Under the pieces are notes generated by a model. The model searched no databases, had not been told where the DNA came from, and saw only the letters and a list, made by a program, of their open reading frames with translations. Below, piece by piece: positions 13,516 through 36,268 of a stretch of 36,268 nucleotides of DNA. Position 1 is the first letter of the stretch. Each line of letters opens with the position of its first letter. Origin of the DNA: SAR86 cluster bacterium (lineage in GTDB: Bacteria; Pseudomonadota; Gammaproteobacteria; Magnimaribacterales; Magnimaribacteraceae); NCBI GenBank assembly GCA_022447025.1, contig JAKUUL010000008.1:1-36268 (forward strand), in the 5' to 3' direction. The position numbers were made by a program, and so were the translations under genes.

Positions 13516-15141
13516 TTATTTCTTTGACAGATTTATTAATTCTTCACCAAATTTTACAGCTTTAGACTCATACAAGAAATTTTTATCTGCTTCTATACCT
13601 GAAGGCAGTAACAAAATTACTGTAGAGCCCATTTGAAAGTAACCTAATTCTTGGCCTTTACTCACAGCTTTTAAATTTTCTTCAGGACCTTCGTTCCACA
13701 AATCAACTAAATTTCTTCTTTTAGGTTTAGTTTCTGTATTCCAAAAAGGAACTATGCTACCGACCATGGCTGCCCCCACACTGACCAGGCCGTAATAAAA
13801 ATTATCTGACTTTACATAGCAAAAAGTTCTTTCATTATTGCTGTACAAAGACTTTATCTTTCGAGTTGATTGGGCATTAACGCTGTATAAATTACCTTCT
13901 AGATACCTAGTTTCTTCTATTGTTCCGTTAAAAGGAGAATGTATTCTGTGGTAATTTTTAGGTGCCAAATAAATAGTAATAAAAAAACCATTTCTGAAAG
14001 TCTTTGCCAATGTCTTATCTTTAATAAGATCGCCTAAATTGTATTTAATGCCTTTCGCTTGAATGAGCGTCTCTTTTTCTATCTTTCCCAGCTGCACAAC
14101 CATTCCGTCAACAGGAGAAGTTATTATATTTATATCTGGGTTTATTGGCCTAGATTCGGATTTTAGCTTCCTTGTAAAGAAAGCATTAAAACTTTTGAAC
14201 CTTTTTATATTGCCTTCTGCAGACTCTTTAAGGTTAGGTTTATAAAAATAACAAAAAAGGCCTATAAGTAAGTCTTTTATAAAAAGAATTTCTGATTTAG
14301 AAAAATACCCAGCTAAGGTAGTTAGCTGTTTAAAAGGTACAAGCGGCCTTATTACGGCTAAAGGGCTATTTTTTCCAATAAAAAAATCAGGGATAAGCTT
14401 GTTGGTGTGGATTGAATAAACTGTGTATTTAGGAAAGTCAGCAAGTAATCTTTTTTCTGTCCCTTCAATAGAAATAAACAGGTAAAGGGACATAATTAGA
14501 GGTCCGTAAAAACTCCATTCTCCGCCTATTGAACTACACGCAATTATATATAGAGCCCACCACTGCAATAGATGACCAAAATAATTAGGATGTCTTGAAA
14601 GTCTCCATAAACCAGTAGTTAAAATTTCCGTTTCTTTAGGGTTTTCGGCCTTAAAGGCTAATAAATCACGATTAGATTTAGTTTCTGCATAAAAACCCAA
14701 GGAAAATAGAATTAATCCCATGAAATCAAGAAAGTTAAGACTATTCATGCCAGGAAGGTAGTTAACTGAAATTATTGGAGAGATAACAATGACTTGCAGT
14801 ATTCCCATTTTAAGAAAATTATTTCTATAAGACTCCAAGCTCCTTTCATAAACTTCTTTTCCTATACCAGTCTTTAGTTCCCCTTTTTTATTTGTGAAAA
14901 GAAGAAGCTTAATTCCTAACACTAAGGCTAAGGAATTAACCAAAATTTGTCTTAAATGGAAGCCAGAAATCTCTAAAAGGCCTTGCAAGGCCATTGTCAA
15001 AAGTGCGAGCAGGGCAATGCCACCTCCCCAATAAAGATCTCTTAAATAAAACTGGTCTTTTTTCTTAATGATCAACCACAAAAGAGTAACTATTGACCAA
15101 TTGATCAAAGTGATATAAATAAAAAGTTCTAGAAGCGACAT
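13516..15141 (-). CDS. psd: DUF1295 (ICMT/steroid-reductase-like) membrane domain fused to phosphatidylserine decarboxylase
   Basis: N-terminal part: multi-TM region with LSRHPNYFGHLLQWW and IEGTEKRLLADFPKY. C-terminal part: PSD with FNAFFTRKL, SPVDGMVVQLGKIE (Asp), YHRIHSPFNG (His) and MGSTVILLLP (Gly-Ser self-cleavage site). Confidence 0.9.
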   Translation of the reverse strand: MSLLELFIYITLINWSIVTLLWLIIKKKDQFYLRDLYWGGGIALLALLTMALQGLLEISGFHLRQILVNSLALVLGIKLLLFTNKKGELKTGIGKEVYERSLESYRNNFLKMGILQVIVISPIISVNYLPGMNSLNFLDFMGLILFSLGFYAETKSNRDLLAFKAENPKETEILTTGLWRLSRHPNYFGHLLQWWALYIIACSSIGGEWSFYGPLIMSLYLFISIEGTEKRLLADFPKYTVYSIHTNKLIPDFFIGKNSPLAVIRPLVPFKQLTTLAGYFSKSEILFIKDLLIGLFCYFYKPNLKESAEGNIKRFKSFNAFFTRKLKSESRPINPDINIITSPVDGMVVQLGKIEKETLIQAKGIKYNLGDLIKDKTLAKTFRNGFFITIYLAPKNYHRIHSPFNGTIEETRYLEGNLYSVNAQSTRKIKSLYSNNERTFCYVKSDNFYYGLVSVGAAMVGSIVPFWNTETKPKRRNLVDLWNEGPEENLKAVSKGQELGYFQMGSTVILLLPSGIEADKNFLYESKAVKFGEELINLSKK

Positions 15142-35505: not shown

Positions 35506-35925
35506 TTAGGTTTCAGGGTTTTTAGTAAAGCTATGCAGGGTTTCATCTACGGGAGACCAGTGTCTTGCACTTGAGCTCCAGAAATTGGAATCTATTTTTA
35601 GCCAAGACGAATCATCTAAGCTTCCTGCTTTGACTAATCTTAAGCCTTCTACCTCCTCTATTAAACTCAATAAGGGAGAGCCGCACTTCTCACAGAAACC
35701 TCGACTAATATGGCTTCCGTCAGTACCGGTAACTGTGTAAAACTTCAGTTCTCCTTTAATCTCTAAAGCTTCTTCAGGAACCATAATAATTGTAGCTTTG
35801 CCTGAACCCGTCGACCTTTGACAATCTGTGCAATGGCAGTGACTTGCAGATATTACTGAAGACTCATTAAAGCTATAACTTATGTCTCCACACAAGCAAC
35901 TGCCCGTTTTCTTTTCTTCACTCAT
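35506..35925 (-). CDS. GFA (glutathione-dependent formaldehyde-activating enzyme-like) family zinc protein
   Basis: GSCLCGDISYSF; SHCHCTDCQRSTGSG; FCEKCGSPL. Confidence 0.93.
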   Translation of the reverse strand: MSEEKKTGSCLCGDISYSFNESSVISASHCHCTDCQRSTGSGKATIIMVPEEALEIKGELKFYTVTGTDGSHISRGFCEKCGSPLLSLIEEVEGLRLVKAGSLDDSSWLKIDSNFWSSSARHWSPVDETLHSFTKNPET

Positions 35926-36268
35926 TATTTTCCTTTAATTTTTTTTTACCCATTGGAAACAGAGAAGAAGTAGTTTGTTTATAAATCTGATAATCTGGAT
36001 CTTCACCCCATTTCTTATCCGCTCTTCTCTCCAACATGCTAATCCCACTTATTCTTGTTAAGAGAATATAAACGAAAATTGGAGAAATTAAAGTAAGAAG
36101 TTGCCATCCTTCTAGCACCGGGAAAGCTATAAGGGCAATTCCTAACCATAAAGTAATTTCGCCATAGTAGTTAGGATGCCTAGAAAACCTCCAAAGCCCT
36201 TCATCAATAAACTTACCTTCATTTTCTTTTTTTGATTTAACTTTAGTCTTTTGATTATCAGCAACAAC
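35918..36268 (-). CDS. DUF1295 family membrane protein, truncated by the window edge
   Basis: Frame stays open through the ORF-track start to the window end: VVADNQKTKVKSKKENEGKFIDEGLWRFSRHPNYYGEITLWLGIALIAFPVLEGWQLL...LERRADKKWGEDPDYQIYKQTTSSLFP. Confidence 0.9.
   Translation of the reverse strand, partial: VVADNQKTKVKSKKENEGKFIDEGLWRFSRHPNYYGEITLWLGIALIAFPVLEGWQLLTLISPIFVYILLTRISGISMLERRADKKWGEDPDYQIYKQTTSSLFPMGKKKLKENNE

What the first reader, a model, noticed from the sequence alone, without database searches (positions are those of the whole stretch)
13516..15141. Natural fusion of a DUF1295 membrane domain to phosphatidylserine decarboxylase
One continuous 541-codon frame encodes a DUF1295 (ICMT / steroid-5-alpha-reductase-like superfamily) domain, then a complete PSD with its Asp, His and Gly-Ser self-cleavage motifs. 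The linker (KYTVYSIHTNKLIPDFFIGKNSPLAVIRPLVPFKQLT) has no Met that could start a separate psd, so it does not look like two unfused genes. PSD makes phosphatidylethanolamine. Related ICMT/PEMT-type enzymes use RHPxY-type motifs for SAM-dependent methylation, while steroid-reductase relatives reduce lipids. Inference: the enzyme may couple PE formation to a second lipid modification, or the extra domain may only anchor the enzyme.
Basis: partly seen in the sequence, partly recalled or inferred. Interest (0 to 1): 0.68.

Follow-up and report, generated by a model that had tools for sequence, protein, structure and literature searches.

The report
Membrane-anchored PE-making enzyme fusion in SAR86
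In one small branch of the ocean bacteria called SAR86, the enzyme that makes the common membrane lipid phosphatidylethanolamine has become one protein with a seven-helix membrane partner that most relatives encode as the gene next door; the partner looks worn down as an enzyme, so it more likely holds the lipid enzyme at the membrane than adds a second lipid reaction.

Summary
In detail: window 13516-15141, minus strand, is one 541-codon frame with DUF1295 (residues 21-243) and a complete phosphatidylserine decarboxylase (PSD, about 262-541). It is not an artefact: the same unbroken fusion occurs in all four species of this SAR86 genus (88-54% identity) and in one species of another genus. 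About 29 other genomes of the family carry the two halves as adjacent, closely spaced genes at the same syntenic place, several in the same frame and parted by one stop codon. No other fusion turned up in 369 gammaproteobacterial and 299 phylum-wide genomes (overlapping samples).

PSD keeps its triad (D345, H398, S506), and PssA is encoded. The psd-linked DUF1295 is one monophyletic, fast-evolving subfamily that has lost most residues invariant in ordinary DUF1295, including positions matching steroid-reductase NADPH contacts (D164 is N157, E197 is H190). Yet it is under purifying selection (dN/dS about 0.25), and RHPNY is kept in all five fused proteins. Seven helices and the positive-inside rule put PSD on the cytosolic face. 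Best reading: an integral anchor or scaffold derived from a membrane reductase/methyltransferase fold, joined by stop-codon loss. An altered second activity in the fused genera is not excluded.

The parts
13516..15141 (-). DUF1295-PSD fusion gene, 541 codons plus stop
14413..15141 (-). DUF1295 domain, residues 1-243: seven predicted TM helices (3-28, 32-55, 63-90, 102-128, 137-165, 185-201, 207-235)
   Evidence: Pfam PF06966 21-243 E 1.8e-32; AlphaFold model, mean pLDDT 89
14581..14595 (-). RHPNY motif, residues 183-187; H190 (14572-14574) stands where ordinary DUF1295 mostly has Glu
14359..14412 (-). variable linker, residues 244-261; residues 251-255 have pLDDT below 50; no standard start codon
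   Evidence: dN/dS of residues 244-290 is 0.39-0.47 in g1 pairs
14242..14358 (-). N-terminal helices of PSD (260-267, 270-281, 286-300), matching by position the three membrane-binding amphipathic helices of E. coli PSD
   Evidence: model; E. coli helices described in PMC7952604
13519..14241 (-). PSD catalytic core, residues 301-541: D345, H398, H401; cleavage between G505 and S506 would leave a beta chain (1-505, still joined to DUF1295) and an alpha chain (506-541)
   Evidence: fold match to E. coli PSD 7cnx/6l06, TMt 0.86-0.89; cleavage itself inferred
13516..13518 (-). stop codon

Best explanation
The gene encodes an integrally anchored phosphatidylserine decarboxylase. SHOWN from sequence: an adjacent, closely spaced gene pair (a diverged DUF1295 followed by psd), present across one SAR86 family at one place, became a single gene in genus g1 (window) and in g2, most simply by substitution of the DUF1295 stop codon, since many unfused pairs are in frame with one stop between them. 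PREDICTED: seven helices with positive cytosolic loops put the C-terminus, and so PSD, on the cytosolic face, where PssA-made PS is available. INFERRED: the PSD part autocleaves at G505/S506 via D345-H398, leaving a 505-residue membrane-embedded beta chain and a 36-residue pyruvoyl alpha chain that decarboxylates PS to PE. The DUF1295 part no longer does its ancestral cofactor-dependent reaction; it serves as a membrane anchor or scaffold that fixes PSD stoichiometry, position and perhaps substrate entry, in addition to PSD's own amphipathic helices.
For: Fusion conserved in 5 genomes. DUF1295 and psd joined or adjacent and syntenic in 18 of 18 family genomes examined besides the window, the partner being degenerate in one, G009; gaps of -4 to +27 nt once psd starts are matched, in frame in 8 of 14 unfused junctions. 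Psd-linked DUF1295 is one clade, 100/100. Ordinary DUF1295 invariants kept: S69 0/30, R103 1/30, D183 1/30, E216 1/30, against 19-20 of 20 canonical paralogs; E87, D88, R90, R95 in 0-2 of 28 against 23/23 in other gammaproteobacteria. PMC7815742 lists D164, N193 and E197 of SRD5A2 among NADPH-binding residues; the HMM alignment puts D183 and E216 at D164 and E197. Pfam DUF1295 score falls from 253 bits (ordinary) to 100-136 (three fused), 32-71 (four unfused) and none in G009. dN/dS of the DUF1295 half is 0.23-0.28 in g1 pairs, so it is kept. K+R counts: cytosolic loops 4, 6, 4, 5; periplasmic 0, 0, 0. PSD triad kept 5/5. PssA in 7/7 family genomes tested.
Against: Within g1 the RHPNY block and TM6 (173-206) is the most conserved part of the whole protein, 65% invariant against 53% for the PSD core; a bare anchor would not obviously need this. 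The five fused proteins keep R, H, P, N, Y, W194 and W195, and one (G003) keeps Asp at position 157. PSD already binds membranes by its own helices in E. coli, so why an extra anchor is needed is unclear. Domain orientation in the model is uncertain (pTM 0.68). No biochemistry.
Confidence: 0.58

Rival explanations
1. Bifunctional enzyme with changed chemistry: in the fused genera the DUF1295 half keeps a cofactor pocket (RHPNY) with H190 in place of Glu and modifies PE or its acyl chains, for instance by SAM-dependent methylation or NAD(P)H reduction, with product passed on from PSD.
For: RHPNY plus W194-W195 kept 5/5; block 173-206 the most conserved in g1; PEMT hit 24.9 bits at a 25-bit cut-off and Steroid_dh over its cut-off; D35 and W38 still present in the window.
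Against: Glu replaced by His or Thr at 190 in all five fused rows, Asp by Asn at 157 in four of five, D88 and R90 of the ED-x-RY loop absent in all five. Related unfused partners lose even RHPNY, so the pairing with psd does not depend on it. The PEMT hit is at superfamily level: ordinary DUF1295 L123 scores 30.7 bits.
Confidence: 0.25
2. The DUF1295 half is still an ordinary reductase or methyltransferase of its family, merely joined to PSD without functional coupling.
For: Pfam DUF1295 well above cut-off; same fold class.
Against: Loss of family invariants; monophyletic long-branched clade always beside psd; adjacency kept across a family argues for coupling.
Confidence: 0.12
3. Artefact: sequencing or assembly error joins two genes, or a free PSD is made from an internal start so the fusion is only apparent.
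For: The window genome is incomplete and fragmented (123 contigs, 74% complete); neighbours in the family have two genes; G001 and G002 have start-like codons in their linkers.
Against: Five genomes with open frames at 88-41% identity; dN/dS below 0.5 across the linker in g1 pairs that could be computed; no standard start codon between 218 and 346 in the window.
Confidence: 0.03

Closest known systems
E. coli phosphatidylserine decarboxylase (Psd; TIGR00163; PDB 6l06, 7cnw-7cnz)
   Same: PSD half 38% identical over the fold match; self-cleavage residues D90, H144, G253-S254-T255 kept; N-terminal helices in place
   Different: E. coli Psd is monotopic with no TM domain (PMC7952604); here about 260 residues with seven TM helices precede it, and D142 is Asn
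DUF1295 (PF06966), e.g. the SAR86 paralogs and the 260-aa gammaproteobacterial proteins such as L123
   Same: Same Pfam family, seven-helix fold, RHPNY-G block, C-terminal E and Y..Y positions
   Different: Lost D183/D158, R103/R73, E216 and the ED-x-RY loop; separate clade
Steroid 5-alpha-reductases SRD5A2 (7bw1) and PbSRD5A (7c83)
   Same: Fold class, seven TM helices, N-out/C-in (PMC7815742)
   Different: NADPH residues D164 and E197 replaced by N157 and H190; fold match weak (TM about 0.55, E 0.08-0.3 for the domain alone)
ICMT / PEMT methyltransferases (5v7p)
   Same: RHPxY-type motif, superfamily fold
   Different: Below Pfam cut-offs for the window protein; SAM-binding motifs not tested

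Membership tests
Phosphatidylserine decarboxylase, proteobacterial type (TIGR00163/PF02666) | Profile match over curated cut-off | tested here: met
   205.1 bits against 111.75; PF02666 206.9 against 22
Phosphatidylserine decarboxylase, proteobacterial type (TIGR00163/PF02666) | Asp-His-Ser self-cleavage triad and G-S-T site | tested here: met
   D345, H398, S506, GST 505-507; the second Asp (D142) is Asn, reported redundant with D90
Phosphatidylserine decarboxylase, proteobacterial type (TIGR00163/PF02666) | PSD fold | tested here: met
   Foldseek E 1e-19, TMt 0.88 to E. coli PSD
Phosphatidylserine decarboxylase, proteobacterial type (TIGR00163/PF02666) | Decarboxylates PS to PE; autocleaves | not testable with these tools
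   needs expression in a psd(ts) strain
DUF1295 (PF06966) | Profile match over cut-off | tested here: met
   113.1 bits against 20.4
DUF1295 (PF06966) | Residues invariant in ordinary members | tested here: not met
   R103, D183, E216 and ED-x-RY lost in the window; RHPNY kept. A diverged subfamily by homology, not an ordinary member
NADPH-dependent steroid 5-alpha-reductase | NADPH residues including D164, N193, E197 (SRD5A2 numbering) | tested here: not met
   D164 and E197 replaced; N193 = N186 kept; the other listed residues not assessed one by one
SAM-dependent phospholipid/isoprenylcysteine methyltransferase (PEMT/ICMT) | Profile match over cut-off | tested here: not met
   window: PEMT 24.9 against 25, ICMT 18.8 against 24; ICMT 27.2 passes for one fused relative, L036
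SAM-dependent phospholipid/isoprenylcysteine methyltransferase (PEMT/ICMT) | SAM binding | not testable with these tools
   needs a binding assay

The most novel reading that the evidence does not exclude
In the fused genera the DUF1295 half has been re-tuned (H190 for Glu, RHPNY retained) into a second active site that acts directly on the PE made by the attached PSD, giving a two-step lipid enzyme and an unknown membrane lipid in abundant ocean bacteria.
Probability: 0.2. Interest if true: 0.75.

Novelty: new variant of a known kind. Interest (0 to 1): 0.42.

Why it matters
I found no earlier description of this architecture in the papers searched. It links a protein family of unknown function (DUF1295), physically and by conserved gene order, to PE synthesis, and supplies a graded natural series: separate genes, in-frame separate genes, fusion, and a decayed partner. 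That makes it a tractable case for how a membrane enzyme turns into a scaffold, and for what PSD gains from an integral anchor. It also draws attention to the uneven PE pathway in SAR86, one of the most abundant ocean bacterial groups.

Tried and rejected
Frameshift or assembly error: rejected, five genomes agree. Independent internal psd start: no ATG/GTG/TTG from codon 219 to 346 in the window, but G001 and G002 have ATG/GTG/TTG codons in their linkers, so it is excluded only for the window species. Ordinary SAR86 DUF1295 paralog as source of the fused half: not supported, psd-linked DUF1295 is a separate 100/100 clade. Fusion elsewhere: none in 369 class-level genomes or 299 phylum-level genomes; a DUF1295-like frame downstream of psd in L074 was seen once and not pursued. 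Single or double origin of the fusion: unresolved; the five fused PSDs group with support 75/56 only. Literature on DUF1295 with PSD, or SAR86 PSD: nothing relevant.

Full report
WHAT IS THERE. Window 13516-15141 on the minus strand is one frame of 541 codons with an ATG start. Residues 21-243 match DUF1295 (E 1.8e-32) and 318-536 match PS_Dcarbxylase (E 3.2e-61); TIGR00163 scores 205 bits against a cut-off of 112. Between codons 219 and 346 the only near-start codon is a CTG at 221, so the statement that no separate psd start exists holds for this species.

IS IT REAL. The window is contig C102 of a 74%-complete genome; the nearest named records are SAR86 REDSEA-S09_B4 (88%), Gammaproteobacteria UWMA-0063 (64%) and SAR86 ALOHA_A2.5_133 (54%). 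Searching 61 relatives, the whole 541-residue protein is matched without a stop in all four species of genus g1 and in the one g2 genome. Within g1, dN/dS is 0.23-0.28 for the DUF1295 half, 0.16-0.20 for PSD and 0.39-0.47 for the linker where dS was not saturated. That excludes an assembly join and shows that both halves are maintained.

WHERE IT CAME FROM. Eighteen further family genomes were read around the locus. The order is the same everywhere: a divergent ExbB-like operon, then DUF1295, psd, efp and argS. In g1 and g2 the two middle genes are one; in the others they are two, with gaps from -4 to +27 nt once psd starts are matched to relatives. In 8 of 14 unfused junctions psd is in the same frame as DUF1295. 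In G006 the spacing from the T-P-K-L-F-P block at the end of DUF1295 to the first proline of PSD is 18 codons, one of them a stop; in the window the spacing from T-N-K-L-I-P is also 18 codons, with no stop (read by eye). Loss of that stop is enough to make the fusion. The five fused PSDs group together, but only at 75/56 support, so one or two events are possible. No other fusion appeared in 369 gammaproteobacterial genomes or 299 genomes across the phylum. The two samples overlap, and unfused adjacency outside the family was checked only in the fetched loci.

THE PSD HALF. It is the canonical gammaproteobacterial type. D90, H144, G253, S254 and T255 of E. coli PSD correspond to D345, H398, G505, S506 and T507, kept in all five fused, 14 unfused and 21 other proteins. 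E. coli D142 is Asn in all five fused and Asp in all 14 unfused relatives, and Asn also in 4 of 21 other gammaproteobacteria. D90 and D142 are reported to stand in for each other in autocleavage (PMC7952604), so cleavage is still expected. The model matches E. coli PSD at TMt about 0.88. PssA, which makes the substrate, is found in all seven family genomes tested.

THE DUF1295 HALF. The model has seven helices (mean pLDDT 89, pTM 0.68) and weak fold matches to PbSRD5A, SRD5A2 and ICMT. Charges in the loops (cytosolic K+R 4, 6, 4, 5; periplasmic 0, 0, 0) put the C-terminus in the cytosol, in line with the N-out, C-in topology of PbSRD5A (PMC7815742). This is the right side for PSD.

The psd-linked DUF1295 proteins form one clade (100/100) apart from the other SAR86 DUF1295 paralogs. 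Compared with 20 SAR86 paralogs, 30 psd-linked rows (two of them fragments) keep R103 in 1, D183 in 1 and E216 in 1. Compared with 23 other gammaproteobacterial DUF1295 proteins, 28 rows keep E87 in 2, D88 in 0, R90 in 1, R95 in 0 and D158 in 1. By the profile alignment, D183 and E216 fall on SRD5A2 D164 and E197, both listed as NADPH-binding. In the window these are N157 and H190; the fused protein of G003 keeps the Asp. Alignment in the charged loop is uncertain because it is shortened. The final Glu is not invariant in the wider gammaproteobacterial family either: L134 has Asn there. The Pfam score declines from 253 bits (ordinary L123) through 113-136 (g1) and 100 (g2) to 32-71 in four unfused partners, and no hit in G009, whose 207-residue partner has lost the RHPN stretch.

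HOW IT PROBABLY WORKS. Shown: fusion, conservation, synteny, loss of family invariants, purifying selection. Predicted: topology and fold. Inferred: PSD autocleaves at G505/S506, leaving the beta chain joined to the membrane domain, and converts PS to PE on the cytosolic face; the DUF1295 half acts as anchor or scaffold. E. coli PSD holds the membrane with three amphipathic helices; helices at the matching place are still present here (260-300), so the TM domain is an addition, not a substitute.

WHAT DOES NOT FIT. Inside g1 the RHPNY block and following helix (173-206) is 65% invariant, above the PSD core at 53%. Fused proteins keep R183-Y187, W194 and W195. A scaffold could need this block for packing, but a changed active site is a fair alternative, which I put near 0.25.

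NOVELTY. Both domains are known; the joined architecture and the psd-linked, decaying DUF1295 subfamily were not found described, within an open-access library only. I call it a new variant of a known kind.

Noticed in passing
SAR86 order: G035-G038, G040, G041, G043, G056 and others: PSD is patchy in SAR86: found in 89 of 199 genomes and 14 of 40 high-quality ones; eight PSD-negative, near-complete genomes also have no PssA over the TIGR00473 cut-off, so some SAR86 may lack the usual PE route.
   Followed up: partly
L052-L063: Other SAR86 families carry a different, shorter PSD (about 220-270 aa, with FGSRVD at the cleavage site) next to a CDP-alcohol phosphatidyltransferase-like gene, not the E. 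coli type.
   Followed up: partly
window 35918-36268 (-): Start-truncated ordinary DUF1295 paralog at the window edge with intact RHPNYYGE, a useful contrast to the fused copy.
   Followed up: yes
window N396 (codon at 13954-13956, minus strand) and its column in fused and unfused PSDs: The second Asp of the E. coli cleavage site (D142) is Asn in all five fused proteins and Asp in all 14 unfused family members.
   Followed up: partly
L123 (G203): The closest DUF1295 outside SAR86 to the psd-linked clade (142 bits against 114 for the next) lies beside a small membrane-protein frame, not psd.
   Followed up: partly
L074, frame at about 2999 (+): DUF1295-like frame some 700 bp downstream of psd in one gammaproteobacterium (G437), E 1.5e-7.
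   Followed up: no
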